Assembly (NCBI RefSeq): GCF_004352915.1
Contig: NZ_SJSY01000064.1
Span: 95,171 to 159,170 of the forward strand
Direction: 5' to 3'
DNA length: 64,000 nt
Source: Flavobacterium zhairuonense
GTDB taxonomy: Bacteria > Bacteroidota > Bacteroidia > Flavobacteriales > Flavobacteriaceae
The translations under genes were made by a program, and so were the position numbers. The first letter of the stretch is position 1. Each line of letters begins with the position of its first letter. The notes beneath the pieces were generated by a model. That model was not told the origin of the DNA. It made no database searches and saw nothing but the letters and a program-made list of their open reading frames with translations. Below, one piece after another: positions 11,091 to 37,801 of the stretch.

Positions 11091-12218
11091 ATGCAGAATA
11101 TCTTAAAAATTACCTTATTACCTATTTTATTGTTTTCACTTTTTTGTTGTGCGAGCAGTGCGGCATCAATTAATGACAAATCTCCTATTGCTCCAGTTAA
11201 AGGAGTTTGGATTACTAATGTTGCATCAAAAGCGTTAGATTCTAAAGAAAATATTAATGAGGCTGTTGCGCTTTGCAAAAAATCGGGTATTACAGATATT
11301 TATGTAGTGGTTTGGAATAGAGGAACGACTTTGTATCCTAGTAAGATTATGAAAGATTTATTTGGAAAGCCAATTATGGAACGTTTTGGAGATCGTGATC
11401 CATTACAAGAAATGATTGATGCAGGACATAAAGAAAATATAAAAGTGCATGCATGGTTTGAATTTGGTTTTGCTCCTTCTTATGATGAAAATGGAGGCGC
11501 AATCCTGAAAAAATTCCCAAACTGGAAAGCAATTGATAATAAAGGGAACTTGGTAACAAAAAATGGTTTTGAATGGATGAACGCCATGGATCCTGAAGTA
11601 CAGAATTTTGTAAAATCACTGATTATAGAGGTTGTAAAAAAATATAATGTTGACGGAATTCAAGGGGATGACCGTTTGCCAGCAATGCCATCGCTTGGTG
11701 GTTATGATCTTTACACGATAGCTTTATATAAAAAAGAACACAATGGGAATCTTCCTCCTGATGACTATAAAAATCCAGACTGGCTTACTTGGCGCGCAGA
11801 TAAACTGACTGTTTTTCTTGGTGAACTTTATAGAGAATTAAAAGCAATTAAACCTAAATTAATTGTGAGTATGGCCCCAAGCATACATCCTTGGGCAAAA
11901 GAAGAATATCTGCAAGATTGGCCAACTTGGCTGGATAAAGGGTATTGTGATTATGTAATTCCGCAGGTTTATAGAAAAACAATTGAGAGCTACACTTCTA
12001 CATTAGAAGAGCAAGTAAAATTCCTTAAAAAAGATCAAAAAGATAAATTCTTCTCAGGAGTCTTGCTGCAAGTAAATGGTGTAAATCCAAAACCTGATTT
12101 TTTAAAGCAGATGATTGACGTCAATAGAAAATTAGGAGTAAAAGGAGAATCTTTCTTTTTCTATGAAGGTTTGAAAGCTTTTCCAGAATATTTTTCTACA
12201 GAATATACTAAAAAGTAG
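11091..12218 (+). CDS. GHL10-family glycoside hydrolase-like lipoprotein (copy 1)
   Basis: The ATG at 11091 gives a 375-residue product with a signal sequence and a Cys-Cys lipobox (LFSLFCCASS), and it sits just downstream of the promoter; the in-frame GTG at 11043 lies inside the promoter. From residue 37 it is a (beta/alpha)8 GHL10 (YngK/DUF187-like) domain: KGVWITNVAS, ITDIYVVVWNRG, KVHAWFEFGF, the acidic strand end YNVDGIQGDDRLPAMP (about 186-200), IVSMAPSIHPW and CDYVIPQVYRK. GHL10 proteins are related to family 10/13-type TIM barrels and are expected to cut glycosidic bonds; the specificity of this subfamily is not known to me. It is a close paralogue of the lipoprotein at 24269, with the same motifs at nearly the same positions. 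First gene of PUL 1. Confidence 0.85.
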   Translation: MQNILKITLLPILLFSLFCCASSAASINDKSPIAPVKGVWITNVASKALDSKENINEAVALCKKSGITDIYVVVWNRGTTLYPSKIMKDLFGKPIMERFGDRDPLQEMIDAGHKENIKVHAWFEFGFAPSYDENGGAILKKFPNWKAIDNKGNLVTKNGFEWMNAMDPEVQNFVKSLIIEVVKKYNVDGIQGDDRLPAMPSLGGYDLYTIALYKKEHNGNLPPDDYKNPDWLTWRADKLTVFLGELYRELKAIKPKLIVSMAPSIHPWAKEEYLQDWPTWLDKGYCDYVIPQVYRKTIESYTSTLEEQVKFLKKDQKDKFFSGVLLQVNGVNPKPDFLKQMIDVNRKLGVKGESFFFYEGLKAFPEYFSTEYTKK

Positions 12219-12306
12219 ATTGACAAAGAATGTCAAAGAGGTAAATCGCCGTAAAAGCGACTGCCATAATATTGCCTCAAAAATAATTGATTTTTAAAAT
12301 CTGGAT

Positions 12307-13722
12307 ATGAAAACAAGAGCTTTGTCTATTGATGCTTTAAGAGGATTTGCGATTATCGCAATGATACTTTCTGGACAAATGATCCTAACGTATTTACCTG
12401 CTTGGATGGCGCATGCACAAGTGCCCCCCAACTCATCATTTAATCCAAATATTTACGGGATTACTTGGGTAGATCTTGTTTTTCCTTTCTTTTTATTTTC
12501 AATGGGTGCCGCATTTCCTTTTTCATTAGGAAGCAAATTAGAAAATGGAGCTAATAAATGGACGCTCTCCCGAGATTCCTTTTTTAGAGGACTTCAATTG
12601 GTCTTTTTTGCCATATTTTTTGAGCATATGAGACCATTTGTAATCGGTAATCCTGTAGATGTTATTTCATGCTTAATTTCTCTAGGCAGTTTTGTTTTGA
12701 TGTTTTTTATGTTTTCAACAGATACGCTGCCGTTTATAAAAGCTTCAAAAAATCAAAAATTAAATAGTTCGATTATAAAATTAGCGGCTTTTGCAATTGG
12801 ATTTGCGTTATTATTGGCGACAAATTTTCAAGGAAAAGAGAATCAAGATTTTGATCTTTATTATAGCGATATCATTCTGATTGTTCTTGCAAATATGGCC
12901 TTTTTGGCAAGTGTGATTTATATTTTCACATTCAAAAAACCAACTCGCCGACTATTGGTTTTGCCGTTTATTATGGCCGTTTTTTTAGCGAGCACAAACG
13001 ATGGATGGGTAAAGCAATTGTATAATTTTACGCCGTTTGCATGGGCTTACAAATTTTATTATTTAAAATATTTCTTTATCGTAATTCCAGGAACTCTTGC
13101 CGGAGAATATATAAAGGAATGGACTGTTGCGCAGCTAAATGAAGTGCGAGAAAATGATAATAAGGCGATTGTGGCCGGTCTTATTTCTATATCGATTATT
13201 ATAAGCAACGTTTATTTTTTATTTGTACGTGAATTAGAAGTGAATCTTGTGGTTACTTTAGGTTTATTGATTTTGAATTATTTTATTTTAAAATCAAATA
13301 CTTCAGAGTTTGGTGTTTTTTGGAAAAAACTTTTTTCGGCAGGAGCTTATTGTTTAGTATTAGGATTGTTTCTAGAGGCTTATGAAGGCGGCATTAGAAA
13401 AGATACTTCAACGTACAGTTATTATTTTGTGACATCAGGTTTGGCATTTTTTGCGATACTTTTTTTCTCCGTGATTTGTGATTATTTCAAATGTATCAGA
13501 GCAACTAAATTTTTGGTTTTGACAGGACAAAATCCAATGATTGCCTACGTTTCGACCTCAATGGTTGTGATGCCAATTCTCACCATTTTAACAGTTACAA
13601 ATTATTTTGACACATTCAATGAAAATGCTTTTACAGGATTTTTGAGAGGTTTTATACTTACTGTGTTAGCTGTTTTGATAACAACCTTTTTCTCTAGAAA
13701 AAAAATATTTTGGAGAACCTAA
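12307..13722 (+). CDS. NagX-like membrane protein (DUF5009, heparan-alpha-glucosaminide acetyltransferase family)
   Basis: A 471-residue polytopic inner-membrane protein with about ten to twelve hydrophobic segments. The N-terminus has the family signature RALSIDALRGFAIIAMILSG, followed by a long loop and TWVDLVFPFFLFSMGAAFPFSLG. This family includes bacterial NagX and the eukaryotic lysosomal HGSNAT, which moves an acetyl group across a membrane onto terminal glucosamine. In bacteria the gene is repeatedly found in GlcNAc or chitin gene clusters, so a role in acetylating or moving amino sugars is likely but unproven. It lies 88 bp after the first GHL10 gene and 34 bp before the FAD oxidoreductase, inside the operon. 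Confidence 0.82.
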   Translation: MKTRALSIDALRGFAIIAMILSGQMILTYLPAWMAHAQVPPNSSFNPNIYGITWVDLVFPFFLFSMGAAFPFSLGSKLENGANKWTLSRDSFFRGLQLVFFAIFFEHMRPFVIGNPVDVISCLISLGSFVLMFFMFSTDTLPFIKASKNQKLNSSIIKLAAFAIGFALLLATNFQGKENQDFDLYYSDIILIVLANMAFLASVIYIFTFKKPTRRLLVLPFIMAVFLASTNDGWVKQLYNFTPFAWAYKFYYLKYFFIVIPGTLAGEYIKEWTVAQLNEVRENDNKAIVAGLISISIIISNVYFLFVRELEVNLVVTLGLLILNYFILKSNTSEFGVFWKKLFSAGAYCLVLGLFLEAYEGGIRKDTSTYSYYFVTSGLAFFAILFFSVICDYFKCIRATKFLVLTGQNPMIAYVSTSMVVMPILTILTVTNYFDTFNENAFTGFLRGFILTVLAVLITTFFSRKKIFWRT

Positions 13723-13756
13723 AGAATTCAATCTTGCTATTAAAATATTATATATT

Positions 13757-15556
13757 ATGAAAATTCAAATAATCGCATTTTTTTTATTTTGTTATGGATA
13801 TTCTCAGAATATCACCAAAAAAACGGTTGACGTTTTAGTAATTGGAGGCTCTACCAGCGGAACATCTGCTGGTATTGCATCTTCGAGATTGGGAGCTAAT
13901 ACATTAATTGTTGAAGAATCTCCATGGATAGGAGGTATGTTTACTTTGCAAGGAGTTGGTGCCTGCGATGGTAACCATAATTTAGATTCTGGAATCTGGA
14001 ATGAATTCAGAGGCGCGCTTAGAGATTATTACGGAGGTGCCGCTGCTCTTGAAACAGGCTGGGTGAGCAACACACTTTTTGAGCCTTCAGTTGGAAATAA
14101 AATTTTCAATCAAATTGCTGCAAAAGAAAAAAATCTTGCAATTATTCACGGTTATTATGTTGTAAGCATCTTAAAAAATGGAAATATTGTTACAGGTGCT
14201 ACTTTCAAAAATGATAAAAATGATATTTTAGAAGTTCAGGCAAAAATTACAATTGATGCTACAGATATTGGTGAAACGCTGAAAATGGCTGGAGCGGCTT
14301 ATCGCTTAGGAATGGATTCCCAAAAAGAAACCAAAGAAGCCAATGCTCCATTAAAAGCCAATAATATTGTTCAGGATTTAACTTGGGTTGCCATCTTAAA
14401 AGATTATGGCAAAGGAACTGACAAAACTATTGCAAAACCAAGCAATTATTCAGCTTCAAATTTTACTGGTTCTTGCATGGAAACAGTTGATCACAAGGAA
14501 ATCGACTGCGATAAAATGCTATCGTACGGTAAAATGCCTAATAATAAGTACATGATCAACTGGCCGAAAAAAGGCAACGACGTATATCTCGACGTAGTTG
14601 AATTATCAAGAGAAGACAGAAATAAAGAACTGCTAAAAGCAAGAAATTATACTTTACAGTTTGTTTATTATATACAAAATGAACTCGGATACAAGAATCT
14701 TGGTTTAGCTGATGACGAATTTAATACGTCAGATTTATTAGCTTATGCTCCGTATTATCGTGAAGGAAGAAGAGTAAAAGGAGTTTCGTTTTTGACATAT
14801 AACCACGTTGCTGATCCTTATAATCAAAAAGAAGCTTTGTATAAAACAGGAATTTCTGTCGGAGATTATCCTGTAGATCATCATCACAAACAAAACCCAA
14901 ATGCCCCTGATCTTGGATTTCCAGCGGTACCTTCTTATAATGTGCCGCTAGGATCTCTAATCCCTGAAAAAGTTGATGGATTTATTGTTTCTGATAAAGC
15001 GATTTCAGCCTCGAATTTAATTAATGGCGCAACACGTTTACAGCCTGTGGTTTTGCTTACTGGCCAGGCAGCGGGAACTTTAGCAGGAATTGCGGTAAAA
15101 AATAAAGTTGAGCCGCGACAGGTTTCGGTAAGAGAAGTGCAGCAATCACTTTTAAATCAAAAAGCATACATCATGCCTCTGTTTGATGTAAAACCTACAG
15201 ATCCTGCTTTTGAAGCTATTCAAAAAATTACTGCTACCGGAATTTTAAAAACAAAAGGCGAAAGCTACAAATGGGCAAACAGAACTTGGTTTTATCCAGA
15301 ACAGAATATTACAGTTCAGGAATTTACAGAAGGATTGAATCAGTTTGACAAAAAGAATAAAGTCGTGAAAAGTCAAACGCTTCTTACGGAACAGGAAGCA
15401 GTGAATCTTTTGACAAAAGCGGGGGCTAAATTCCCAAAAGGAAATCTTTCGGCAAATCCAATAAGTAAAAAAAACTTGGCAATACTAATTGAGGAAAGCC
15501 TACATGCATTTGAAAAAGAAATTGATTTTTCGGGAAACATCAAAGCCAAAAAATAA
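13757..15556 (+). CDS. periplasmic FAD-dependent oxidoreductase
   Basis: A 599-residue protein with a short signal peptide (IIAFFLFCYGYSQ) and an FAD_oxidored-type domain. The nucleotide-binding motif VDVLVIGGSTSGTSAGIAS is at about 24-42, followed by EESPWIGGMFTLQG, TIDATDIGE, the strand APYYREGRRVKG and the C-terminal FAD motif INGATRLQPVVLLTGQAAG. After about residue 485 a segment (DPAFEAIQKITATGILK, WFYPEQNITVQEF) resembles an S-layer-homology-like module. This family is widespread in Bacteroidota polysaccharide loci, but its reaction is mostly unknown; oxidation of a sugar hydroxyl is a reasonable guess. It has the signal of an exported protein and is followed 4 bp later by the SGNH esterase, so the two are co-translated. 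Confidence 0.8.
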   Translation: MKIQIIAFFLFCYGYSQNITKKTVDVLVIGGSTSGTSAGIASSRLGANTLIVEESPWIGGMFTLQGVGACDGNHNLDSGIWNEFRGALRDYYGGAAALETGWVSNTLFEPSVGNKIFNQIAAKEKNLAIIHGYYVVSILKNGNIVTGATFKNDKNDILEVQAKITIDATDIGETLKMAGAAYRLGMDSQKETKEANAPLKANNIVQDLTWVAILKDYGKGTDKTIAKPSNYSASNFTGSCMETVDHKEIDCDKMLSYGKMPNNKYMINWPKKGNDVYLDVVELSREDRNKELLKARNYTLQFVYYIQNELGYKNLGLADDEFNTSDLLAYAPYYREGRRVKGVSFLTYNHVADPYNQKEALYKTGISVGDYPVDHHHKQNPNAPDLGFPAVPSYNVPLGSLIPEKVDGFIVSDKAISASNLINGATRLQPVVLLTGQAAGTLAGIAVKNKVEPRQVSVREVQQSLLNQKAYIMPLFDVKPTDPAFEAIQKITATGILKTKGESYKWANRTWFYPEQNITVQEFTEGLNQFDKKNKVVKSQTLLTEQEAVNLLTKAGAKFPKGNLSANPISKKNLAILIEESLHAFEKEIDFSGNIKAKK

Positions 15557-15560
15557 TAAA

Positions 15561-16223
15561 ATGTTCAAAAGTATTTGTGTTTTCTTTTCGACTCTTTTTA
15601 TGGGGCTATTAGCTCAAGAAAACAAGCAGGTTTTTCATAATTATTTCTATGACCAAAGACGCTCTTTTTTCGAATCAATGCCAGCAGGTAAAAACGAAAT
15701 TATTTTACTAGGCGATAGTATAACGAATTGTGCCAACTGGGATGAAATTTTTTCAGGTGGGAAGGTAAAAAACAGAGGGATTTCAGGTGATATTACATTA
15801 GGAGTTCTTGACAGAATGGATGAAATCGCAAAACGTAAACCTAAAAAAGTATTTATTCTCATTGGGATTAATGATATCGCTCAAAAAATCAGTACCGAAG
15901 TAATCTTGAAAAATTATCAAAGTATAGTGTCAAAATTAAAAAATGATAGTCCTGGAACGTTAATTTATATTCAAAGCATTTTACCCACAAATGATGAGTT
16001 TGATACATTCAAAAATCATCAAGGAAAAATGGAAACTATAAAACAGGTGAATGTAGAATTAGAAAAATTGGCTAAAGAGAATAATGCCGAGTTTATAAAT
16101 CTTTTTCCGCATTTCTTGGATCAAAACGGCAAGCTGAGCAAATCCTATACAAATGATGGACTGCATCTTTTAGGACCAGGTTATCTGTTATGGGCATCCC
16201 TAATAAAAAAATACATTGAGTAG
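15561..16223 (+). CDS. secreted SGNH/GDSL hydrolase
   Basis: The ATG at 15561, four bases after the previous stop, is preferred to an earlier in-frame ATG at 15489 because it puts a clean signal peptide (MFKSICVFFSTLFMGLLAQ) at the N-terminus of a 220-residue product. All four SGNH blocks are present: the nucleophile in LLGDSITNC (near 50), the Gly in NRGISGD, the Asn in ILIGINDIA and the Asp-x-x-His pair in TNDGLHLLGPGY (near 198). The type is that of PAF-acetylhydrolase-like esterases, which in glycan loci usually take acetyl groups off sugars. Its place between the FAD enzyme and the amino-sugar epimerase suggests deacetylation of the imported glycan; the exact ester is unknown. Confidence 0.85.
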   Translation: MFKSICVFFSTLFMGLLAQENKQVFHNYFYDQRRSFFESMPAGKNEIILLGDSITNCANWDEIFSGGKVKNRGISGDITLGVLDRMDEIAKRKPKKVFILIGINDIAQKISTEVILKNYQSIVSKLKNDSPGTLIYIQSILPTNDEFDTFKNHQGKMETIKQVNVELEKLAKENNAEFINLFPHFLDQNGKLSKSYTNDGLHLLGPGYLLWASLIKKYIE

Positions 16224-17490: not shown

Positions 17491-20400
17491 ATGAAAAAAG
17501 GAATATTATTCTTGATGTTTTGTTTGGTCTCGCTGTTTGCTGAGGCACAGACAAGACAGTTAAAAGGGGTGATTACAGATTCTGACGGCATGCCGCTGGT
17601 GGGAGCTAATGTTTTGATCCAAGGTTCAAAAACTGGAGCTTCGACAGATTTTAACGGAAGTTTTCAATTAGATGTACCAAACCAAAAAACAACGTTGCTT
17701 GTAAGTTACATCGGATTTAAAGACATGACGGTAGATGCTACAGGAAAAACTTCTATAAAAATACAAATGCAGTCTGTAACAAACCAAATGCAAGAAGTTG
17801 TTGTTGTTGGATATGGAACACAAAAGAAAGCAACTTTGACAGGAGCTATCGGAATTGTAAAAGGTGCTGATTTAAACAAAAGAGCAGTAGCGTCATTATC
17901 AACAGGATTGCAAGGAACTATTGCAGGGGTTACGGTACAACAAACTTCTGGAGAGCCAGGAAGTGATGGTTCTAATATCAGAATTAGAGGTATTGGTTCT
18001 GTAAATTCAAGCACATTTCCATTAGTATTGGTAGATGGTATCGAAATGGATATCAATCAAGTAGATATGAATACGGTTGAAAATGTTTCTGTTTTGAAAG
18101 ATGCTGCTTCAGCTTCTATCTACGGATCAAGAGCTTCAAATGGGGTAATTTTGATTACAACAAAAAGAGGAAAAGATGGAAAAATGAAAGTAAGTCTTGA
18201 TGCTTATACTTCGATCCAATCGCCTACAAACATGCCTGTAGTTTTAAAAGCAGCAGATTATCTTCAAGCGGAATTGAATTCTTTGGATAACGCTGGAGTT
18301 ACGATTCCTGCAGATCAGAGAGCAGCAAGAGAGCAAATGATTGCAGATCAAAGAAATTACAAACCAGACAACTGGAACAGATATGATACAGATTGGAAAG
18401 ATGCTACGATCAAAAAGAGCGCAATCATGACCAACAATAATATATCATTATCTGGAGGAGGAAAAGACATTAAATATTTTGGGGCATTCACTTCTCTTAA
18501 GCAAGATGGTTTGATTGAAAATAATAATTTCAGAAGAATCAATGTGAGATTAAATACAGATGCAAAAATTAACGAATGGTTAAAATTAAACAACGAAATC
18601 TCATATAGAACTTCTACTCAATTGACACCTGGAATTTCAACTCCAAAAGGAATCATAAACAAAGCTTTGTATATGTTGCCAACGCTTTCTGCGGTTAAAG
18701 AAATTGATGGAAACTGGGGGTACGGAAAAAATGGTGACAATCCTGTAGCAAATGCAGAAGCATCAGGAAGCCAAACTATTGAAAGACCTGAGATTTTGAT
18801 GAATGCTACTTTGATTGCTACTCCAGCAAGCGGATTGGAAGTATTAGCACAATACAGCTACAGAAAAACTGAAAACAGAGGTACGTTTATCACAACTCCA
18901 TACATGACTTCATTAAAAGGAGTGGTACAAGGTTATTACCCAGCTAGAGATGGTGTTACAGAGGCTTATAGTGCTAATGTTCGCAATTATTTTAGAGCAC
19001 AAGCTTCATATGCTAAAACTTTCGGTGAGCATGATTTTAAAATCATGGCAGGAACCCAAAGCGAGAATAATATTCTTAAAGATATCAGCGCGAGCAAAAA
19101 TGGTTTTGATTTAGAAAGATATTATTTAGTAAACGGTGATGGCGCAACAGCATCAGCAACAGGTGGAGCAACAGAGTGGGCAATGTCTTCTTTTTACGGA
19201 AGATTTAATTATGATTTTGGTGGAAAATATCTGTTTGAAGTAACTGGCCGTTACGATGGTTCTTCTAGATTTAGTGAAGGACAACGTTGGGGATTCTTCC
19301 CATCTTTCTCTGCTGGATGGATGGTGAGCAAGGAGAAATTTATGGAGCCAATCCTACATTATGTAAGTGATTTTAAGTTAAGAGCATCTGTAGGAACTCT
19401 AGGAAATCAAGATATCGGAAACTATCCTTATGCATCAACTATTCAGCCTGGATACAGCTATTGGCTAGACAAACAATTGGCTCAAGGTGTAGCGCAAACT
19501 ACATTATCAAATCCTAATGTTACATGGGAAAAATCAAAACAGACAGATTTTGGTCTTGACGCTACTTTCTTCAACAGAAAACTTTCTGCTACGTTTGATT
19601 ATTACATAAAAGACGTTTACGATATGCTTTTGGTTTATCCAGTAACTTATTATACAGGACTTAACGCAACTTATACTAACGCTGGTGATATGCAGAATAA
19701 AGGTTGGGAGGTTAGTTTGACATACAAAAATCATATTGGAGATTTTAACTACAGCGTTACAGGAAACTTGAGCAACAATGAAAATGAGATTACAAAATTA
19801 TACGGACCAAATTCAGACAGATCAGTTACTGTAGGATATCCTAACGGCGGAATCTGGGGTTATAAAACAGATGGATATTATGTAGACGCAGCCGATGTTG
19901 CAAATTCTCCAAAACTATCTAATGCAACAAAACCAGGTTATGTGAAGTATGTAAAAATGGATCCAACTGGAGCAAATCCAACTCTTATTACTGAAAATGA
20001 CAAAGTATATTTAGGAGATCCATTTCCTCATTATGAGTATGGATTGAATTTGACAGCAAGTTATAAAAACTTTGATTTGACTTGTTTTTTCCAAGGAGTT
20101 GGAGAGCGAAAAGTATTGATGAGCGGTATTGGAGTAAGACCATTCTTTAACGGATCAAATTTATTTGCACATCAAGTTGATTCTTGGACACCTGATCATC
20201 AGGATGCTGCCTATCCAATTTTAGTTCCTGAAGCGAACTCTGCTGATAACTTTGTTGCATCAGATAAATGGGTTAAAAACGGAGCTTACCTAAGATTGAA
20301 AAATATTGTTTTAGGATATAGTCTTCCAAAAACATTTTTAGAAAAAGCACATATTGACGGTCTTCGCCTTTATGTAAGCGGACAAAACTTATGGACTTTG

Positions 20401-26707: not shown

Positions 26708-28947
26708 TGAAAAAGTTAATCCCAGTTTTAATCTTAGCCTGTTTGTTTATTTCGTCAGGCAAAATGGACAAAATAAATGACGTTACCCAATATGTAAATC
26801 CGTTTATTGGTACCGGCGGGCATGGCCACACTTTTCCCGGAGCAGTAGTTCCTTTTGGAATGGTGCAATTGAGTCCAGATACTAGAACGCAAGGCTGGGA
26901 TGCTTGCAGTGGTTATTATACAGAAGACACCAGTATTTTAGGATTTTCACACAGACATTTAAGCGGTACCGGAATGACCGATTTTGCAGATGTACTTTTT
27001 ACGCCGTTTACGGGTAAACTGCAATTAGAAAACGGGAATCTGAAAGAATATTATCCATTGAATTTTTCGCATGAAAATGAAAAAGCTTCAGCTGGTTTTT
27101 ATACGGTGAATTTTGATAATGGCATAAAAGCTTCTATGACAGCATCAACAAGAGCGGGATTTCACGAATACAAATTTCCTTCACAAGAAGCCGGAATTAT
27201 CGTCGATTTGCATCATAATCTGAACAATCAAAAGGTTTTGCAATCTTTTATAGAAATTGTCAGCGATACCGAAATTAGAGGAATGAGATTGACTGAAGGC
27301 TGGTCAAAAAGAGATTATGTTTATTTTCATGCGAAATTCAATAAACCGTTTAAAGTTGAATTGTACAAGGATAATAAAATTGTTTCCGCAAAACAGCTAA
27401 ATGCAGATCATATCAAAGCGGTTTTATATTTTGAAAATCCGAAAGAAGTGAAAGTAAAGGTTGGAATTTCTCCAGTTGACGAGAGAGGCGCTTTGCAAAA
27501 TCTGGATGCTGAAATCCCGCATTGGGATTTTGATAAAACCCAAAAGCAAGCAGCAACATTATGGAAAAATCAGCTTGAAAAATTTAAAATTGAAGGCGGA
27601 ACAGCAGATCAGAAAACTATTTTTTACACTGGATTGTACCATGCTTTTATTCATCCGTCAACGTATTCAGATACAGATAAAAGATATAGAGGACAAGACC
27701 TAAAAATTCATACGCTTGATTCTGGAACGTATTACACGGTATTCTCGCTTTGGGATACCTACAGAGCGCAAATGCCTTTAATTGATTTGATTACGCCTTC
27801 TAAAACAAATGAATTTATCAATTCACTTTTGATAAAATACCAACAAGGCGGTTTGTTGCCAATGTGGGATTTGGCAGCCAACTACACAGGAACAATGATC
27901 GGAGCACATTCGACATCTTTAATTGCGGATGCTTACGCCAAAAACATACGCGGTTACGATACAGAATTGGCCTATAAAGCCATGATGCGTTCAATACCTT
28001 ATGACACAACAGGAGTAAAAGTAAATCATCCTGCAATCTGGGAATGGCTGATGACAAAAGGAAAAAAATACAATCAAGAAATGGGTTTTATTCCTGCTGA
28101 TAAAGATGTGATTTTTGCTACTTCAAGAGGTTTGGAATATGCTTACAACGATTGGGCTTTGGCTCAAGTGGCAAAAGATATGGGAAAAACGGAAGATTAT
28201 AAATGGCTTTCAGAACGTGGAATGCGTTACAAAAAATACTACGACAAAGAAACCGGTTTCATGCGTGCCTTAGACAGCAACGGAAAATTTATTGGGCCAT
28301 TTAATCCTTCTTATTCAGATCATATGAACAGTCCATATTGTGAAGGGAATGCTTGGCAGTGGACTTGGTTTGTACCACAAGATGTAAACGGACTTATTGA
28401 TTTGATGGGCGGTAAAGCTTCTTTTGAAGAAAAATTAGATGCCTTGTTTAATACGACTGCTAAATTGGAAGGAGCAGATGCATCTGCCGATATTTCGGGA
28501 CTAATTGGGCAATATGCACACGGAAATGAGCCAAGTCATCACATTATTTACTTTTATAATTATATCAACAAGCCTTTTAAAACACAAGAATTGGCCGATA
28601 AAATCATGAAAGAGCAATATCGAAATGCTCCTGATGGTTTAAGTGGCAATGAAGATTGTGGACAAATGTCGTCATGGTATATTTTGAATGCAATTGGTTT
28701 TTATCAAGTTGCGCCAGGAGATCCTACTTATACGATTTCTAGACCATTGTTTGATAAAGTTACAATCAATTTAGAAAAAGGAAAAAAGTTGATTGTGAAG
28801 ACTATAAATAATGCTCCAGAAAATAAATATGTCGAATCTGTGACTTTGAACGGAAAGACTTTGAACTCGTTATTTTTTAAACACGACCAAATTGCATCTG
28901 GCGGAGAATTAGTTTTCAAAATGACAAACAAAGCTCCAAACAATTAA
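26707..28947 (+). CDS. GH92 alpha-mannosidase
   Basis: A 746-residue exported enzyme whose ATG overlaps the stop of the YkuD-like gene by one base. After the signal sequence, the N-terminal beta-sandwich begins with the classic GH92 opening VNPFIGTGGHGHTFPGAVVPFGMVQLSPDT-type sequence (seen around residues 31-60) and GFSHRHLSGTGM. The (alpha/alpha)6 catalytic part has YTVFSLWDTYRAQMPL, GGLLPMWDLAANYTGTMIG, NEPSHHIIYFYNY and the closing GNEDCGQMSSWYILNAIGFY with the catalytic-base region. GH92 enzymes are calcium-dependent inverting exo-alpha-mannosidases that trim alpha-1,2/1,3/1,6-mannose from N-glycans and yeast mannan. No frameshift; length is normal. The linkage preference is not readable. 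Confidence 0.92.
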   Translation: MKKLIPVLILACLFISSGKMDKINDVTQYVNPFIGTGGHGHTFPGAVVPFGMVQLSPDTRTQGWDACSGYYTEDTSILGFSHRHLSGTGMTDFADVLFTPFTGKLQLENGNLKEYYPLNFSHENEKASAGFYTVNFDNGIKASMTASTRAGFHEYKFPSQEAGIIVDLHHNLNNQKVLQSFIEIVSDTEIRGMRLTEGWSKRDYVYFHAKFNKPFKVELYKDNKIVSAKQLNADHIKAVLYFENPKEVKVKVGISPVDERGALQNLDAEIPHWDFDKTQKQAATLWKNQLEKFKIEGGTADQKTIFYTGLYHAFIHPSTYSDTDKRYRGQDLKIHTLDSGTYYTVFSLWDTYRAQMPLIDLITPSKTNEFINSLLIKYQQGGLLPMWDLAANYTGTMIGAHSTSLIADAYAKNIRGYDTELAYKAMMRSIPYDTTGVKVNHPAIWEWLMTKGKKYNQEMGFIPADKDVIFATSRGLEYAYNDWALAQVAKDMGKTEDYKWLSERGMRYKKYYDKETGFMRALDSNGKFIGPFNPSYSDHMNSPYCEGNAWQWTWFVPQDVNGLIDLMGGKASFEEKLDALFNTTAKLEGADASADISGLIGQYAHGNEPSHHIIYFYNYINKPFKTQELADKIMKEQYRNAPDGLSGNEDCGQMSSWYILNAIGFYQVAPGDPTYTISRPLFDKVTINLEKGKKLIVKTINNAPENKYVESVTLNGKTLNSLFFKHDQIASGGELVFKMTNKAPNN

Positions 28948-28968
28948 TTGTACAAAAAAAATAGTATT

Positions 28969-31290
28969 ATGAAAAAAAATATAATCTGTTTTGTTCTTTT
29001 TTTAAATGCTCTGATGCTTTCTGCACAGGGGAATAAGTGGGACGTTTATCGTACAATTCCGTTGGCGCAACGAATAAATGAGGTCGAAGGAAAGCCTTTC
29101 ATCCTCAATTCAGATTCAAAAATATTTTATCCAAAAAAGAATGACAATTTAAAGCAGATTGCTGTTTTTTTATCAGAATACATTCAGATTGCAAATGGAT
29201 TAAAAATTGAAATTTCAACAGAAAATCCGAAAGCTAATGGAATTATTTTACAAGATAATTTCAAAAATGATAATAAAGAAGCATACAATTTCGCAGTTAA
29301 TCAGAATCAAATTTTGATTGATGGAGCAACAAGTGCAGGAACTTTTTATGGTGTGCAGCTTTTGCGAAAAGTATTGTTGGAAAACGAAACTAAATCGGTT
29401 ATTGAACTTCCAAGTGTACAAATTACAGATTATCCGCGATTTGCTTATCGTGGCATGCATTTGGATGTTGCGCGTCATTTCGCATCAGCAGAATTTGTCA
29501 AAAAATATATTGATTTGCTGGCTTTGCACAATATTAATACTTTTCATTGGCATTTAACCGATGATCAAGGATGGCGTGTCGAAATTAAAAAGTATCCAAA
29601 ATTAACTCAAATAGGATCTGTACGAACAGAGACACAAGTAGGAAAACAGGTTGGAGTTTATGATGGGAAACCGCACGGAGGATTTTATACACAAGAACAG
29701 ATAAAAGAAATTGTTGCGTATGCACAAAAACGCTTCATTACTATTATTCCCGAAATTGACTTGCCGGGTCATATGGTTGCGGCTTTGGCATCTTATCCAG
29801 AATTGGGTTGTGTTGGAAAAGGATATGAAGTGTATAAAAAATGGGGAGTTTCAGACGATGTTCTTTGTCTTGGAAACGAAAAGACTTTTACTTTTTTAGA
29901 AGGAGTTTTTACAGAATTAATTCCGCTTTTTCCTTCCAAATATTTCCATATTGGAGGTGACGAATGCCCTAAAAAAAGATGGGAAAAATGCCCAAAATGT
30001 CAAGCAAAAATCGCCGAATTGGGTTTGCAAAAAGACAGCAAACATTCAGCTGAAGAAAAATTACAGAGTTATTGTATGTCTAGAATTGAAAAATTCTTAA
30101 ATGCAAAAGGAAAACAAGTCATAGGCTGGGATGAAATACTCGAAGGAGGAATAGCGCCAAATGCTACGATAATGTCTTGGAGAAGTGCTCAAGCAGGAGT
30201 AGAAGCTGTTAAACAAGGGCATAAAGCGATTATGACACCGAGTTCGCATGTTTATTTTGATTATTATCAAAGTACAGATGCAGCTTCTGAACCTTTGGCA
30301 ATTGGCGGTTTTACAAATTTAGAGCGTGTCTATTCCTTCGAACCAATTCCAGATGGATTGACCGAAAATGAAAGAAAACTTGTTATTGGCGCACAAGCAA
30401 ACCTGTGGAGAGAATATATTGATACGGATGCGCAAACAGAATACATGATTTTGCCAAGACTTGCCGCTTTAAGCGAAGTGATTTGGACAAATGCCGATAA
30501 AAAGAATTACAGTAATTTCTTGAATCGTTTATCTGATTTTTTAAAGATCTATAATAAACTGAACTACAATTATGCGAAACATATTTTGGAGGTTTCACCA
30601 GAATACAAAGTAGATACAGAAAATGGTCAATTGATTTTAAATTTAAGAACGTCTAGCAAATTTCCTATTTATTATACTTTGGATGGTTCAGAACCAACTT
30701 TGCAAAGCAAAAAATATACAGAAGGAATAATTGTCAATAGCGCCGTAACTGTAAAAGCTGCCGTTCTTTCAGAGAATTATAAAAGCAAAGTTTTCATCAA
30801 AAAGTTTGAATTCAACAAAGCGACTGCAAAACCTATTGTTTTAAAAAATGAGCCTGTTGATCGTTATCGTTTTAATGGCGGAAAAACGTTGGTTGACGGA
30901 AGAACTGGAACAACAGCTTTTAGCACGGGAGACTGGATCGCACTTTACAAAGATGATTTTGAGGCAACTATAGATTTGAAATCAGTTCAACAAATTTCAG
31001 AAGTTACTATGAATAGTTTTACGTCTCCAAACGACTGGATTTTTGGACCTAAACAATTTCAGGTTTTAATCTCAAACGACGGAATAAATTTTAAGGAAGT
31101 TCATACTCAAGATTTAAAAATCGCTCAAAAAGAGGATGGGCCAAAGATTACAAATTTAAAAGCTGTTTTTGCCAAACAAGACGCAAGGTTTATTAAAATA
31201 AAGGCTCCAATTTTTGAGAAAATTCCAGAATGGCACTATTCTGCGGGACAGCCTACATTTTTATTTGTTGACGAAATTTCAATTAACTAA
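28969..31290 (+). CDS. GH20 beta-N-acetylhexosaminidase
   Basis: The ATG at 28969 is chosen over an in-frame TTG at 28948 because it starts a good signal peptide (IICFVLFLNALMLSAQ). The 773-residue product has a GH20b N-terminal domain (about 25-150), then the GH20 TIM barrel: YRGMHLDVARHF, NTFHWHLTDDQGWRVEIKK, PEIDLPGHM, the catalytic Asp-Glu pair in YFHIGGDECPKKRWEKC (near 330), and VIGWDEILEGG. A chitobiase-C-like sandwich (YYTLDGSEPTLQSKKY, about 560-620) and a C-terminal F5/8-type (CBM32-like) domain (about 630-773) follow. It removes terminal beta-GlcNAc or GalNAc in the periplasm by the substrate-assisted mechanism. Confidence 0.93.
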   Translation: MKKNIICFVLFLNALMLSAQGNKWDVYRTIPLAQRINEVEGKPFILNSDSKIFYPKKNDNLKQIAVFLSEYIQIANGLKIEISTENPKANGIILQDNFKNDNKEAYNFAVNQNQILIDGATSAGTFYGVQLLRKVLLENETKSVIELPSVQITDYPRFAYRGMHLDVARHFASAEFVKKYIDLLALHNINTFHWHLTDDQGWRVEIKKYPKLTQIGSVRTETQVGKQVGVYDGKPHGGFYTQEQIKEIVAYAQKRFITIIPEIDLPGHMVAALASYPELGCVGKGYEVYKKWGVSDDVLCLGNEKTFTFLEGVFTELIPLFPSKYFHIGGDECPKKRWEKCPKCQAKIAELGLQKDSKHSAEEKLQSYCMSRIEKFLNAKGKQVIGWDEILEGGIAPNATIMSWRSAQAGVEAVKQGHKAIMTPSSHVYFDYYQSTDAASEPLAIGGFTNLERVYSFEPIPDGLTENERKLVIGAQANLWREYIDTDAQTEYMILPRLAALSEVIWTNADKKNYSNFLNRLSDFLKIYNKLNYNYAKHILEVSPEYKVDTENGQLILNLRTSSKFPIYYTLDGSEPTLQSKKYTEGIIVNSAVTVKAAVLSENYKSKVFIKKFEFNKATAKPIVLKNEPVDRYRFNGGKTLVDGRTGTTAFSTGDWIALYKDDFEATIDLKSVQQISEVTMNSFTSPNDWIFGPKQFQVLISNDGINFKEVHTQDLKIAQKEDGPKITNLKAVFAKQDARFIKIKAPIFEKIPEWHYSAGQPTFLFVDEISIN

Positions 31291-32392: not shown

Positions 32393-33493
32393 ATGAAAAC
32401 CAGAAGAGATTTTTTAAACCAATTAGGATTGGGCGCGGCATCTGCAATGAGTATTCCTTTATTGAGTTCTTTTGAAAGTGCTTCAGCTATAAAAACTGAA
32501 GAAAGACCAGAATTAATTACACAAGATCGTCCAGAATTATTGGTTCCAAAAGGAAATGCATTACGAATTACGGGAACTTTCCTTGACGAAATTTCACACG
32601 ATATTCCGCATCAAAACTGGGGAGAAAAAGAATGGGATCAAGATTTTGCGCACATGAAGGCTATTGGTATTGATACCGTTATCATGATTCGTTCAGGCTA
32701 TAGAAAATTCATTACCTATAATTCTGATTATTTGATCAATAAAAGAGGCTGTTATAAACCGGGCGTTGATCTTTTGGATATGTATCTGCGTTTGGCTGAC
32801 AAGCATAAAATGAAGTTTTATTTCGGATTATATGATTCTGGTGTTTATTGGGATACGGGAGATATGACAACTGAAATCGAAGCCAATAAATTTGTTATCG
32901 AGGAAGTTTGGAAAAAGTACGGACATTACAAAAGTTTTGCAGGTTGGTATTTAAGTGGAGAAATTAGCCGTAAAACCAAAGGTGCAATTGAATCATTCAG
33001 AACTTTAGGTCAGTTGTGTAAAGATGTTTCTGGAGGTTTGCCAACCTTTATGTCGCCTTGGATTGACGGCAAAAAAGCAGTAATGGCTGCTTCAGGAAAA
33101 CTTTCTAAAGAAGATGCAGTTTCAGTTCAGGAACATGAAAAGGAGTGGGGCGAAATTTTTGACGGAATCAAAGGTGCTGTTGATGCTTGTGCGTTTCAAG
33201 ACGGGCATATTGATTATGATGAATTAGATGCTTTTTTCTCTGTAAATAAAAAACTTGGAGATAAATATGGTTTGGAATGCTGGACAAATGCGGAGACTTT
33301 TGACAGAGACATGCCAATCAAATTTTTCCCAATCAAATTTGAAAAATTGAGATTAAAATTAGAAGCTGCACAAAGAGCAGGATACCAAAAAGGAATCACT
33401 TTTGAATTTTCACACTTTATGAGTCCGCAATCTGCTTATTTGCAGGCAGGTCATTTGTACGACAGATACAAAGAGTATTTTGGTATCAAATAA
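32393..33493 (+). CDS. DUF4434-like TIM-barrel glycosidase candidate
   Basis: A 366-residue protein starting with a twin-arginine-like signal (MKTRRDFLNQLGLGAASAMS). From about residue 55 the pattern is that of the DUF4434 putative glycoside hydrolases: LRITGTFLDEISHDIP, EKEWDQDFAHMKAIGIDTVIMIRSG, KMKFYFGLYDSGVYW, GWYLSGEISRK with a possible catalytic Glu at a strand end, and a late acidic stretch (AFQDGHIDYDELD; CWTNAETFDRD). The family's activity is not established to my knowledge. If the signal is used by the Tat system the protein would be exported folded, perhaps with a metal or cofactor. It is within the operon, 34 bp before the sugar porter. Confidence 0.7.
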   Translation: MKTRRDFLNQLGLGAASAMSIPLLSSFESASAIKTEERPELITQDRPELLVPKGNALRITGTFLDEISHDIPHQNWGEKEWDQDFAHMKAIGIDTVIMIRSGYRKFITYNSDYLINKRGCYKPGVDLLDMYLRLADKHKMKFYFGLYDSGVYWDTGDMTTEIEANKFVIEEVWKKYGHYKSFAGWYLSGEISRKTKGAIESFRTLGQLCKDVSGGLPTFMSPWIDGKKAVMAASGKLSKEDAVSVQEHEKEWGEIFDGIKGAVDACAFQDGHIDYDELDAFFSVNKKLGDKYGLECWTNAETFDRDMPIKFFPIKFEKLRLKLEAAQRAGYQKGITFEFSHFMSPQSAYLQAGHLYDRYKEYFGIK

Positions 33494-34912: not shown

Positions 34913-34961
34913 TTTTTATATTTACTATTCCGTTGGATGTAATTTTAAAAAAATACATTCT

Positions 34962-35099
34962 AACACATAGAAACATAGATTTTTTCTTCTCCATTTTGAA
35001 GGTAATAAAAAAAGCCAGCTTTCACACATAGATAACTATGTGTGTTAATACAAGTGGAACGCCTTTTCTACAGAGAGTTAAACTATGATTCTATGTGTT
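34962..35099. repeat. 138-bp nested palindromic element, copy 2
   Basis: Same element as at 32207. It has the left end AACACATAGAAACATAG (34962-34978), the right end ctatgattctatgtgtt (35083-35099, one mismatch), the inner aaaaagccagctttcac block and a central cacatag/ctatgtg stem. It lies between the two transporter genes. Confidence 0.85.
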
Positions 35100-35156
35100 A
35101 AATAAATTGTACACAACGGTTATTTACTACTAAACACTATCAAACCAAAACCAATT

Positions 35157-36419
35157 ATGAAATTCTTTTCAAAGCTCCAAACCAAAGAACCAAAGTCGAT
35201 TTTAAATGCTGCCGTTATTGTAGCTGCTTTAGGTTATTTTGTTGACATTTATGATCTTTTATTATTCGGAATTGTCCGAACAGATAGCCTCAAGGATTTA
35301 GGAATTACTGGCGATGCCATCCGAAATCAAGGCGAGTATCTCATCAGTATGCAGATGTTCGGAATGTTGTTTGGAGGAATTCTGTGGGGAATTCTTGGAG
35401 ACAAAAAAGGAAGAATTTCAGTTTTGTTTGGCTCTATTCTGATTTATTCTGTTGCTAATATTGCTAACGGAATGGTAACCACAATTGATGGTTATGCTTT
35501 TTGGAGATTGATCGCAGGAATTGGACTTGCAGGAGAATTAGGCGCCGGAATCACACTTGTAGCAGAATCTTTGCCAAAGGAAAAACGTGGTTACGGAACT
35601 ATGATTGTAGCTTCGGTTGGAGTTTCTGGAGCAGTTGCCGCTTATATAATTTATGAAGTTTTCCAAGACTGGCGTTTGTGTTATTATGCAGGTGGCGTTT
35701 TAGGAATCTTATTATTGTTTTTGAGAATCAGCATTACAGAATCAGGAATTTTTAAAAGAGTTCAGGAAGAGAATGAAAAGAAAGGAGATTTTTTGTCCTT
35801 ATTTACAGATAGAAAGCGATTTTTTAAATACATAAACTGTATTTTGATCGGAATGCCTCTATGGTTTTTGGTTGGCGTATTGATTACATTTTCCCCTGAA
35901 TTTGCAAAAGCATTAAACATACAGCAAGCCGAAACGATTGAAGCCGGCAAAGCGATTGCATTTTGTTACGCAGGATTGGTTTTTGGAGATATCGCCAGCG
36001 GACTTTTGAGTCAGTGGCTGAAAAGCAGAAAAAAAGTAATGTATTGGTTTTTGGCTTTCAACCTATTAATGGTATTTGTTTATCTGAATGTTTCTGCTAT
36101 TTCAACAAATGTGTTTTACTTTCTTTGTCTTTTAATGGGAGTTTCTGTTGGGTATTGGGTACTTTTTGTAACCATTGCAGCAGAGCAATTTGGAACAAAT
36201 ATTAGGGCAACGGTTACTACAACGGCACCAAATTTTGTGAGAGGGTCGCTTCCCTTGATCATCTTGATTTACTCTTATTTCAGAGATTCGATTTTTGAAG
36301 GAGATATTATCAAATCGGGAATGGTCGTGGGATCTTTATTATCTATAATTTCATTGTTGGCTTTGTCACAATTAAAAGAAACTTTCTCTGTAGATTTAGA
36401 TTATTCTGAAAAAGCATAA
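35157..36419 (+). CDS. MFS transporter (metabolite:H+ symporter-like)
   Basis: A 420-residue twelve-helix major facilitator, distinct from the sugar porter before it. It shows the MFS loop-2 motif GGILWGILGDKKGRISVLFG, a Glu-rich helix 5 (RLIAGIGLAGELGAGITLVAES), and FGTNIRATVTTTAPNFVRG in the second half. This layout is that of organic-acid or sialate type symporters rather than hexose carriers. In Bacteroides an MFS protein (NanT) imports sialic acid next to an AGE epimerase, so an acidic or amino sugar is possible; direct evidence is lacking. It is the last gene of the contiguous PUL 1 run and ends in a terminator. Confidence 0.8.
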   Translation: MKFFSKLQTKEPKSILNAAVIVAALGYFVDIYDLLLFGIVRTDSLKDLGITGDAIRNQGEYLISMQMFGMLFGGILWGILGDKKGRISVLFGSILIYSVANIANGMVTTIDGYAFWRLIAGIGLAGELGAGITLVAESLPKEKRGYGTMIVASVGVSGAVAAYIIYEVFQDWRLCYYAGGVLGILLLFLRISITESGIFKRVQEENEKKGDFLSLFTDRKRFFKYINCILIGMPLWFLVGVLITFSPEFAKALNIQQAETIEAGKAIAFCYAGLVFGDIASGLLSQWLKSRKKVMYWFLAFNLLMVFVYLNVSAISTNVFYFLCLLMGVSVGYWVLFVTIAAEQFGTNIRATVTTTAPNFVRGSLPLIILIYSYFRDSIFEGDIIKSGMVVGSLLSIISLLALSQLKETFSVDLDYSEKA

Positions 36420-36579
36420 TAAAAAATCAATGTTAAATTATTTCATTTACCTAAGTTGAGTGCTTAATGGTTTGGTTATCAATTGCACCAGTCGAATTCA
36501 ATAAAATGGTTATTTTTTAGTAAATTTAATTTTACTTGTAGATTATTGATGAAGATTGTTTTTGTAAATAATTTAATAG

Positions 36580-36607
36580 AAAAGGAAGGTAGAAATGCCT
36601 TCCTTTT
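36580..36607 (+). terminator. terminator of PUL 1
   Basis: Ten-bp perfect arms AAAAGGAAGG (36580-36589) and CCTTCCTTTT (36598-36607), 8-nt loop, T run at the 3' end. It closes the operon that ends with the MFS gene. Confidence 0.75.
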
Positions 36608-36628
36608 TAAATATTAATTCAATTGAAT

Positions 36629-37801
36629 ATGAACCGAACTGCTAAAATAAATTTTATGAATAAATTCCTTTTTTTATTTTGTCTTCTATGTTTTCTTTCA
36701 GGTTGTAAATCAGCAAAAAATAGTCCTATTACTCAAATTTTAAAAAGTGATAACAGTGCTATTAAAAAAGTGGCAGAACAGCCGGAACATTATGAATTGC
36801 AGATTATTTATACTTCGATAAAAAGAAAAAGCGATGGAAAAGTTATTTTAAAAGATTACAAATACAACGTCGATGCTTCAAATTATTTTTACCCGGCAAG
36901 TACAGTAAAACTTCCGATTGCAGTGCTGGCTTTGGAAAAATTGAACAAGATGAAAGATGTTGATGTAAATACCGTTTTTACCGTTGATAATGATACAACC
37001 AAAGCATCTTTTTCAGACAATTTGCGTAAAATTTTTGCGGTGAGTTCAAATGAGGCAAGTAATGATTTTTATGAATTTATGGGACGCGATTATATTAATT
37101 CAAAACTCCATGAAAAAGGATTAAAAGAAGTTCAAGTAAATCATCGTTTATCAACTCCGAACTCAGGAGCTTCGCAGACAAAAAAAATAACGTTTTATAA
37201 AAAAGATGGTGAAAAAATAATCATTCCAAGTGTTAACGATAGCAAAATTATTCCGTTGAAATTAAATAAAACGTTAAAAGGGAAGGGCTATCTTGAAGAC
37301 GATAAACTGGTTAATTCTCCAATGGATTTTAGCAGAAAAAATTATCTTCCGTTAGAAACTTTGCACGGAGTTATGAAAAGAATTGTTTTCCCGAATAATT
37401 TTTCAAGCAAAGAACGTTTTGATTTGTCAAAAGAGAACAGAGAACTTCTTTTGTTTGATATGCAGAATTTGCCTAGAAATGCAGGTTTTAATCCAAAAGA
37501 ATATTACGACGGATACTGCAAGTTTTTAATGTTTGGCGATACAAAAGACCCAATTCCAAGTAACATAAAAATATATAATAAAGTTGGTGATGCTTACGGA
37601 ACATTAGTCGATTGCGCTTACATTGTAGATGAAGTTAATCATGTCGAATTTATTCTCAGTGCTACTTTATTGGTCAACGAAGACCAAATTTTCAATGATG
37701 GGATTTATGAATACGAAAAGATAGGATTGCCTTTTCTTGCACAACTTGGACGCGCTTTTTATGATTTGAATTTAAAGGAAGGTAAAAAAGATCAGTTGTA
37801 A
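36629..37801 (+). CDS. class A beta-lactamase-like serine hydrolase lipoprotein
   Basis: The ATG at 36629 gives 390 residues (an ATG at 36656 is an equally good start). The signal ends in LLCFLSGCKS, a lipobox. The penicillin-recognising fold is indicated by the SxxK nucleophile motif in FYPASTVKLPIAVLALEKL (near 90), the second motif VSSNEASNDFYEF (S-x-N type, near 138) and a KxG third motif in YNKVGDAYGTLVDCAY (near 317). The lower similarity to true beta-lactamases, the lack of an obvious omega-loop Glu and the lipoprotein anchor suggest a peptidase or esterase of D-amino acid or ester bonds. It stands alone behind the PUL 1 terminator and before the LacI gene. Confidence 0.72.
   Translation: MNRTAKINFMNKFLFLFCLLCFLSGCKSAKNSPITQILKSDNSAIKKVAEQPEHYELQIIYTSIKRKSDGKVILKDYKYNVDASNYFYPASTVKLPIAVLALEKLNKMKDVDVNTVFTVDNDTTKASFSDNLRKIFAVSSNEASNDFYEFMGRDYINSKLHEKGLKEVQVNHRLSTPNSGASQTKKITFYKKDGEKIIIPSVNDSKIIPLKLNKTLKGKGYLEDDKLVNSPMDFSRKNYLPLETLHGVMKRIVFPNNFSSKERFDLSKENRELLLFDMQNLPRNAGFNPKEYYDGYCKFLMFGDTKDPIPSNIKIYNKVGDAYGTLVDCAYIVDEVNHVEFILSATLLVNEDQIFNDGIYEYEKIGLPFLAQLGRAFYDLNLKEGKKDQL

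What the first reader, a model, noticed from the sequence alone, without database searches (positions are those of the whole stretch)
11091..37801. Amino-sugar PUL that contains peptidoglycan-type enzymes
One co-directional run joins SusC/SusD with GH20, GH92, two GHL10 lipoproteins, an AGE epimerase and a NagX-like protein, and also carries a YkuD L,D-transpeptidase-like enzyme and, just after the terminator, a class A beta-lactamase-like lipoprotein. The last two families normally act on peptidoglycan peptides, not on plain polysaccharide. A third GHL10 protein sits next to a peptidoglycan amidase at 58-64 kb. The proposal is a locus for peptide-bearing glycans: peptidoglycan fragments or glycopeptides. 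GH92 argues for N-glycan or mannoprotein instead.
Basis: partly seen in the sequence, partly recalled or inferred. Interest (0 to 1): 0.75.

Follow-up and report, generated by a model that had tools for sequence, protein, structure and literature searches.

The report
Peptidoglycan-feeding SusC/SusD gene cluster
A 16-gene nutrient-uptake cluster in a bacterium that is probably a Flavobacterium combines sugar-cutting enzymes of a family known to cleave bacterial cell walls with two enzymes predicted to cut peptides, so it would likely let the cell feed on other bacteria's peptidoglycan, although an alternative diet of mannose-bearing glycoproteins is not excluded.

Summary
The "YkuD" protein matches no Pfam or NCBIfam model, but its AlphaFold model has a YkuD fold, closest to two L,D-carboxypeptidases, with an invariant His-Gly and Cys. 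An unannotated lipoprotein (31307-32188) models as a glutamic-peptidase fold, so the locus holds two predicted peptide-acting enzymes. In distant genomes GHL10 is fused to the exo-muramidase NamZ (one case), and the same module sits near NamZ, NagZ-type, AmpG-type and MurNAc/GlcNAc-kinase-like genes (two genomes). The YkuD gene occurs in 4 of 299 genus genomes, exactly those with this SusD; 13 of 13 DUF4434-centred loci read outside the genus lack it, so it is accessory. The beta-lactamase-like gene is not part of the locus: 27 of 299 genomes have it, 23 of them without the locus. Recurrent alpha-mannosidases keep a glycoprotein diet alive. Peptidoglycan scavenging is my leading reading, at about even odds.

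The parts
9407..10633 (+). ROK-family regulator with winged-helix-like N-terminus; likely regulator of the locus
   Evidence: ROK 150 bits, helix-turn-helix matches below their cut-offs; a 43% homologue lies beside the AGE/FAD/DUF4434 module in G032 and G073; 99.8% and 99.5% identical in G520 and G348
11043..12218 (+). GHL10 lipoprotein a (start probably ATG 11091)
   Evidence: PF02638 223 bits; sequence match to solved Cwp19 5oq2 E=1.2e-10; 25% identical to E. coli DigH with shared invariant Asp209-Asp210
12307..13722 (+). DUF5009 / NagX-HGSNAT-like membrane N-acetyltransferase
   Evidence: PF16401 237 bits; NagX model 50 bits, below cut-off
13757..15556 (+). FAD-dependent oxidoreductase with signal-peptide-like start
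   Evidence: PF12831 314 bits; recurs with DUF4434/AGE outside the genus
15489..16223 (+). GDSL/SGNH esterase-like (start uncertain; ATG at 15504, 15561 or 15600)
   Evidence: PF13472 87 bits
16254..17456 (+). AGE, N-acyl-D-glucosamine 2-epimerase (predicted ManNAc/GlcNAc)
   Evidence: NF052547 642 bits over cut-off 600; solved AGE 6f04, 2gz6 E<1e-156
17491..20511 (+). SusC-type TonB-dependent transporter
   Evidence: Plug and CarbopepD_reg_2
20516..22360 (+). SusD-type surface glycan-binding lipoprotein
   Evidence: SusD_RagB 149 bits
22389..24215 (+). lipoprotein in SusE position, no Pfam family over cut-off
24269..25399 (+). GHL10 lipoprotein b
   Evidence: PF02638 222 bits; 57% identical to GHL10 a
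25478..26707 (+). YkuD-fold cysteine enzyme with N-terminal helical domain; predicted L,D-peptidase
26707..28947 (+). GH92 alpha-mannosidase family
   Evidence: PF07971 583 bits; solved GH92 7zgm E=2.4e-164
28948..31290 (+). GH20 beta-N-acetylhexosaminidase family (first ATG 28969)
   Evidence: PF00728 406 bits
31307..32188 (+). lipoprotein with predicted glutamic-peptidase fold
32393..33493 (+). DUF4434 protein
   Evidence: PF14488 277 bits; solved 4h41 602 bits
33527..34912 (+). sugar-porter MFS transporter
   Evidence: TIGR00879 347 bits over cut-off 238
35157..36419 (+). second MFS transporter; last gene of the run
   Evidence: MFS_1 95 bits; conserved in place in G520, G348 and, cut by the contig end, G338
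36623..37801 (+). beta-lactamase-like serine hydrolase: neighbour, NOT part of the locus
   Evidence: 27 of 299 genus genomes have it, 23 of them without the YkuD gene

Best explanation
This 16-gene SusC/SusD operon is predicted to be a scavenging locus for peptidoglycan-type fragments, that is GlcNAc-MurNAc strands and the peptides on them. Inferred order of work: the lipoproteins GHL10 a and b, probably on the surface, would cut the glycan strands, as Cwp19 and DigH of the same family do. SusD and SusC would bind the pieces and bring them into the periplasm. There the YkuD-fold cysteine enzyme would trim L,D-peptide bonds of the stems; its closest solved folds are L,D-carboxypeptidases, so hydrolysis is more likely than cross-linking. 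The lipoprotein with the glutamic-peptidase fold would cut longer peptides. GH20 would remove GlcNAc from non-reducing ends. The NagX-like protein would re-acetylate free glucosamine, AGE would convert ManNAc to GlcNAc, and the two MFS proteins would import the sugars. MurNAc would be finished by NamZ and MurQ-type genes found elsewhere in the genome. The role of GH92 is not explained; removal of mannose from wall-attached glycans is a guess. Shown here: gene content, predicted folds, conserved motifs, co-conservation, the GHL10-NamZ fusion, and the presence of MurQ- and NamZ-family genes. All activities in this organism are inferred.
For: GHL10 has peptidoglycan-cleaving members: Cwp19 is a lytic transglycosylase with a GHL10 catalytic domain (PMC6016235, passages), and DigH degrades denuded peptidoglycan glycans (PMC12288456, passages and introduction). 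DigH matches PF02638 at 453 bits, and GHL10 a matches solved Cwp19 at E=1.2e-10. A single 931-residue protein in G895 carries GHL10 (48-342) and NamZ exo-muramidase (577-930). In G637 and G686 the DUF4434/AGE/GHL10 module sits near NamZ, a NagZ-type GH3, a NagX-type acetyltransferase, an AmpG-type transporter and a kinase resembling GlcNAc/MurNAc kinases. GHL10 lies within 20 kb of DUF4434 in 10 of 15 anchors against 0.41 expected, within 10 kb in 6 of 15 against 0.21. The YkuD-like family lies within 10 kb of GHL10 in 4 of 27 loci against 0.45 expected (p about 0.001; still 4 of 27 at 20 kb, 0.88 expected, p 0.01), three of them with DUF5009 too. The YkuD gene and this SusD occur in the same 4 of 299 genus genomes, with conserved gene order. 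The genome has two MurQ-type genes over the cut-off, one about 0.6 kb from a NamZ gene.
Against: No amidase, NamZ, NagZ, MurQ or AmpG match lies inside the 16-gene run. The YkuD gene is absent from 13 of 13 DUF4434-centred loci read outside the genus; in G799 and G597 it lies on another contig than DUF4434. No DUF4434 is found in the stretches fetched around the 27 other YkuD-like genes, 23 of these 27 have no GHL10 within 10 kb, and NamZ is near the YkuD-like family in 0 of 27. GH20 and the glutamic-peptidase-fold lipoprotein are also absent from those 13 loci. NamZ lies within 10 kb of DUF4434 in only 1 of 15 (0.13 expected, p 0.12), 2 of 15 at 20 kb. GHL10 and NamZ each occur in 34 of 34 genomes searched, so mere presence says little; the NamZ-GHL10 closeness (6 of 129 within 10 kb, 1.1 expected) comes from four genomes and includes tandem copies. 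Alpha-mannosidases recur with the module: GH92 here and in G254 and G827, GH38 in G637, G686 and G773; I know of no peptidoglycan role for them. AGE suggests ManNAc. The YkuD assignment is by fold and motif only: Foldseek gives nothing at E<=0.001 and profile comparison with the genome's own five YkuD proteins fails. GHL10 a is only 25% identical to DigH.
Confidence: 0.5

Rival explanations
1. A glycoprotein/glycopeptide PUL: GH92 and GH20 strip mannose and HexNAc from glycoproteins, the glutamic-peptidase-fold lipoprotein cuts the protein, AGE and the MFS pair handle the released sugars, and the GHL10 and YkuD-fold enzymes have taken on non-wall roles.
For: GH92, whose best solved matches are GH92 alpha-mannosidases; GH20; recurrent GH92/GH38 in related loci; the fold of 31307-32188 resembles glutamic peptidases including HC7 solved with glycopeptides, a di-glutamate mucinase (PMC13003899, passages).
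Against: None of the 16 genes matched a GH18, GH85, GH130 or GH163 model in the Pfam scans. The characterised GHL10 proteins I found and the YkuD structures matched are peptidoglycan enzymes, and GHL10 is fused to NamZ in one genome and near it in others.
Confidence: 0.27
2. A sialic-acid-type or ManNAc-glycan locus: the AGE, MFS, GH20, SGNH esterase and SusC/SusD set resembles nan operons (recalled for Tannerella and Bacteroides).
For: AGE over its curated cut-off. In G032 the AGE/FAD/DUF4434/MFS/SusCD module includes a DHDPS-family protein nearest to N-acetylneuraminate lyase (136 bits, below the cut-off of 281).
Against: A probe with that protein finds only one 23%-identical relative in this genome. 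No sialidase family among the 16 genes; the rest of the genome was not searched for sialidases.
Confidence: 0.08
3. A locus for a partly N-deacetylated, peptide-free amino-sugar polysaccharide such as PNAG or chitosan: GHL10 cuts it, GH20 trims, and the NagX-like enzyme re-acetylates glucosamine.
For: NagX-like protein here and, in six YkuD-like loci, AAC(3)-type N-acetyltransferases; the third GHL10 protein shows a very weak GHL13 match, E=0.049.
Against: It gives no role to the YkuD-fold, glutamic-peptidase-fold or GH92 proteins; the characterised GHL10 proteins I found act on peptidoglycan.
Confidence: 0.1

Closest known systems
Tannerella forsythia ampG-murTKQ muropeptide/MurNAc operon (PMC5388701, passages)
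   Same: A Bacteroidota operon for scavenging environmental peptidoglycan fragments; the G637 and G686 clusters share AmpG-type and MurNAc-kinase-like genes with it.
   Different: Its main text has no occurrence of SusC, SusD or TonB and the passages seen name no GHL10, GH92 or YkuD enzyme; the window run has no ampG, murT, murK or murQ match.
DigH of E. coli and Cwp19 of Clostridioides difficile (GHL10 proteins)
   Same: Same Pfam family; both cleave peptidoglycan glycan strands.
   Different: They serve cell division or autolysis; here the family sits in a nutrient-uptake operon, GHL10 a being 25% identical to DigH.
Pgp2 and Csd6 L,D-carboxypeptidases (titles and abstract starts only)
   Same: Closest solved folds to residues 185-395 of the YkuD-like protein.
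   Different: They trim the cell's own wall to set shape (abstract starts). The match covers only the catalytic part; the helical N-terminal domain here was not among the matched residues.
N-glycan/glycoprotein PULs of Bacteroides with GH92 and GH20 (recalled)
   Same: SusC/SusD with GH92 and GH20.
   Different: No endo-glycosidase match in the run; adds GHL10 and YkuD-fold proteins.
Glutamic peptidases: eqolisins, neprosin, HC7
   Same: Predicted fold of 31307-32188.

Membership tests
SusC/SusD polysaccharide utilization locus | adjacent SusC and SusD genes with co-directional glycan enzymes | tested here: met
SusC/SusD polysaccharide utilization locus | the set is conserved as a unit | tested here: met
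   16 of 16 run genes in the same order in G520 and G348; 14 in G338, whose contig ends inside the locus on both sides
YkuD (L,D-transpeptidase) superfamily | YkuD fold of the catalytic domain | tested here: met
YkuD (L,D-transpeptidase) superfamily | HG(T)...[ST]xGC catalytic signature (motif recalled) | tested here: met
   His330-Gly331, Gly352-Cys353 invariant in 50 of 50; Ser in the [ST] place in 33 of 50, Thr in others sampled
YkuD (L,D-transpeptidase) superfamily | match to the curated PF03734 model | tested here: not met
   no match; so it is a divergent relative by fold, not a member of the Pfam family
GHL10 peptidoglycan-cleaving enzymes | PF02638 over the curated cut-off | tested here: met
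   223 and 222 bits, cut-off 27.9
GHL10 peptidoglycan-cleaving enzymes | activity on peptidoglycan glycan | not testable with these tools
   needs enzyme assay
Class A beta-lactamase as part of the locus | linked occurrence with the locus | tested here: not met
   27 of 299 genomes have it, 23 of them without the YkuD gene; the G338 match is a 53% homologue on another contig
nan (sialic acid) operon | N-acetylneuraminate lyase in locus or genome | tested here: not met
   only a 23% DHDPS-family match in the genome with the G032 protein as probe
N-glycan PUL | endo-beta-N-acetylglucosaminidase or GH130 in the locus (recalled criterion) | tested here: not met
   no such Pfam match among the 16 genes
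Glutamic peptidase | eqolisin/neprosin-type beta-sandwich fold | tested here: met
   predicted model
Glutamic peptidase | catalytic Glu/Gln or Glu/Glu pair in place | tested here: inconclusive
   several invariant Glu and Gln (Q114, E115, E123, Q221, E225, Q230) but not mapped onto the active site

The most novel reading that the evidence does not exclude
A SusC/SusD locus dedicated to eating the bacterial sacculus: GHL10 strand cutters, a secreted YkuD-fold enzyme turned from wall building to catabolism, and a glutamic-peptidase-fold lipoprotein together dismantle prey or detrital cell walls, with AGE and GH92 clearing ManNAc and mannose from the attached secondary wall polymers.
Probability: 0.3. 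Interest if true: 0.75.

Novelty: new variant of a known kind. Interest (0 to 1): 0.52.

Why it matters
Peptidoglycan is an abundant polymer, but the only Bacteroidota route for eating it that I met in the papers seen is the Tannerella muropeptide operon, described there without SusC/SusD. If this locus works as proposed, it gives a genetic marker (GHL10 + DUF4434 + AGE + DUF5009, with or without the YkuD-fold gene) for bacteria that feed on other bacteria's walls. It would also suggest a role for several families of unknown function and show a YkuD-type enzyme used for nutrition.

Tried and rejected
Beta-lactamase-like gene as part of the locus: rejected. Terminator before it: none found. A homologue of the SusE-position lipoprotein in the distant YkuD/GHL10 cluster: BLASTP best E 0.24. 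YkuD-GH92 adjacency in Deminuibacter soli (L008, convergent genes): a single case, treated as possibly chance. PHROGs for the two unknown proteins: no match. Flavobacterium-type promoter pattern (recalled): 7 matches, 7.4 expected by chance, none at the operon start. Foldseek for the YkuD-like model: no hit at E<=0.001. Profile comparison of the YkuD-like family with the genome's own YkuD proteins: no usable alignment, 0.2% probability. Single-sequence search of the class with the YkuD-like protein: 2 of 295 genomes, own included; the profile search later gave 23 of 395 in the phylum. The scan of genome contigs gave one locus. Paper searches: in the listings I saw no paper describing a SusC/SusD locus for peptidoglycan; one search was swamped by an over-short term, and most subscription papers are not held.

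Limits: 50 sequences (the query and 49 of the 120 listed of 1438 homologues) form the YkuD-like alignment; 34 (the query and 33 of 120 listed of 651) that of 31307-32188. DUF4434 contexts were fetched for 13 of 15 other genomes (G613 and G690 were not fetched), 16-39 kb each. In the closeness test I left out the window's own genome, the second DUF4434 copy of G032, the eight other GHL10 rows with E of 2e-6 or weaker, and the second segment of one G637 gene; GHL10 copies within 10 kb of each other were merged when GHL10 was the target; genome sizes are rounded and genomes treated as independent.

Full report
The locus. The window holds a co-directional run of 16 genes from 11043 to 36419. In order: GHL10 a, DUF5009/NagX-like, FAD oxidoreductase, GDSL esterase, AGE, SusC, SusD, a SusE-position lipoprotein, GHL10 b, the YkuD-like protein, GH92, GH20, an unannotated lipoprotein, DUF4434 and two MFS transporters. 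A ROK regulator (9407-10633) lies upstream and probably belongs, because a 43% homologue lies beside the related module in G032 and G073. The organism is inferred to be a Flavobacterium from the names of the nearest proteins; the genome itself is unnamed.

GHL10 is the strongest clue. Cwp19, whose catalytic domain is GHL10, was shown to be a lytic transglycosylase (PMC6016235, passages). DigH degrades peptide-free peptidoglycan glycans (PMC12288456, passages and introduction); I confirmed that DigH matches PF02638 (453 bits) and that GHL10 a matches solved Cwp19. In genome G895 one 931-residue protein joins GHL10 to the exo-muramidase NamZ.

How the locus travels. The YkuD-like gene is in 4 of 299 genus genomes, own included. 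This SusD (83-100% identical) is in the same four; ten further genomes have only 33-35% relatives at the threshold used. Gene order is kept in the other three: 16 of 16 run genes in G520 and G348, and 14 in G338, whose contig ends at both sides. Two named metagenome-assembled genomes show the YkuD-like and the 31307-32188-type proteins 15 locus-tag units apart (GZ087_07390/07405, H7Y10_11340/11355), three genes if tags step by five, as here; GZ087 may be G338 itself, since both contigs are 22,343 bases long. Across the phylum, 23 of 395 genomes (own included) hold the YkuD-like family in 28 places. Of the 27 others, four lie within 10 kb of GHL10 (0.45 expected, p about 0.001; at 20 kb still four, 0.88 expected, p 0.01). 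Three of these also have DUF5009, and all four an SSS-symporter-like gene, in the fetched stretch. So the YkuD-GHL10-NagX link exists outside this genus too, in differently arranged clusters, but in a minority of the family.

The core without YkuD. Centred on DUF4434, 16 of 296 genomes (own included) match; I read the surroundings in 13 of the 15 others. None carries the YkuD-like gene there, nor GH20, nor the 31307-32188-type lipoprotein, but AGE, FAD oxidoreductase, GHL10, DUF5009, GDSL and SusC/SusD recur in varying sets. GHL10 is within 20 kb in 10 of 15 anchors, against 0.41 expected. In G637 and G686 this core lies near NamZ, a NagZ-type GH3, a NagX-type acetyltransferase, an AmpG-type transporter (TIGR00901 179 bits for the G637 protein, below the cut-off of 350; the G686 protein by 65% identity to it) and a kinase that resembles GlcNAc/MurNAc kinases (tested for G637; the G686 protein is 49% identical). 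NamZ is within 20 kb of DUF4434 in only these 2 of 15 anchors (0.25 expected, p 0.025). The YkuD gene is therefore an accessory, not part of the core.

What speaks against peptidoglycan. GH92 is in the run; GH92 recurs in G254 and G827, and GH38 in G637, G686 and G773. AGE implies ManNAc. In G032 the core includes a DHDPS-family protein nearest to N-acetylneuraminate lyase, although a probe with it finds only a 23%-identical relative in the window's genome. The run itself has no amidase, NamZ or MurQ match; those exist elsewhere in the genome (two MurQ-type genes over the cut-off and one NamZ next to one of them), and an Amidase_2/GHL10 pair lies at 58-64 kb. GHL10 and NamZ occur in 34 of 34 genomes searched, so their presence in a genome is not specific; only closeness is informative.

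The beta-lactamase-like gene. It occurs in 27 of 299 genus genomes, 23 of them without the YkuD gene; in G338 the only match is a 53% homologue on another contig. In G520 its order relative to the LacI gene differs from the window's. It is a neighbour. By eye the translation has an STVK motif but no E-x-x-L-N motif (motifs recalled), so even beta-lactamase activity is doubtful.

Verdict. I commit to peptidoglycan scavenging at 0.5, with a glycoprotein diet as the main rival at 0.27.

Noticed in passing
window 58110-64000: A GHL10 protein with PKD, golvesin C-terminal and type IX secretion tail domains is followed by an Amidase_2 protein; they share 71% identity over 232 residues outside the catalytic parts. 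Amidase plus GHL10 would make and then cut denuded glycan, the DigH logic.
   Followed up: partly
L129:5357-8149 (G895): A single protein fuses GHL10 to the NamZ exo-muramidase; among the 34 genomes searched for both families it is the one I saw in a shared open frame.
   Followed up: partly
L065, L067, L078, L087, L088, L089: The YkuD-like family has an AAC(3)-type N-acetyltransferase beside or near it in six distant loci (Pfam-checked in L067 only); reason unknown.
   Followed up: no
L089:12551-17112: Near the YkuD-like gene: GH94 phosphorylase, phosphohexomutase and NanE-type ManNAc-6-phosphate epimerase, again an amino-sugar setting.
   Followed up: no
window 39084-49975: A second SusC/SusD locus on the minus strand with a right-handed beta-helix protein, alkaline phosphatase-like protein and FecR regulator.
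   Followed up: no
window 55959-56939: A BstXI-type restriction endonuclease (PF09552, 230 bits).
   Followed up: no
window 32393-33493: DUF4434, a family of unknown function by its Pfam name, lies within 20 kb of GHL10 in 10 of 15 anchors in other genomes.
   Followed up: partly
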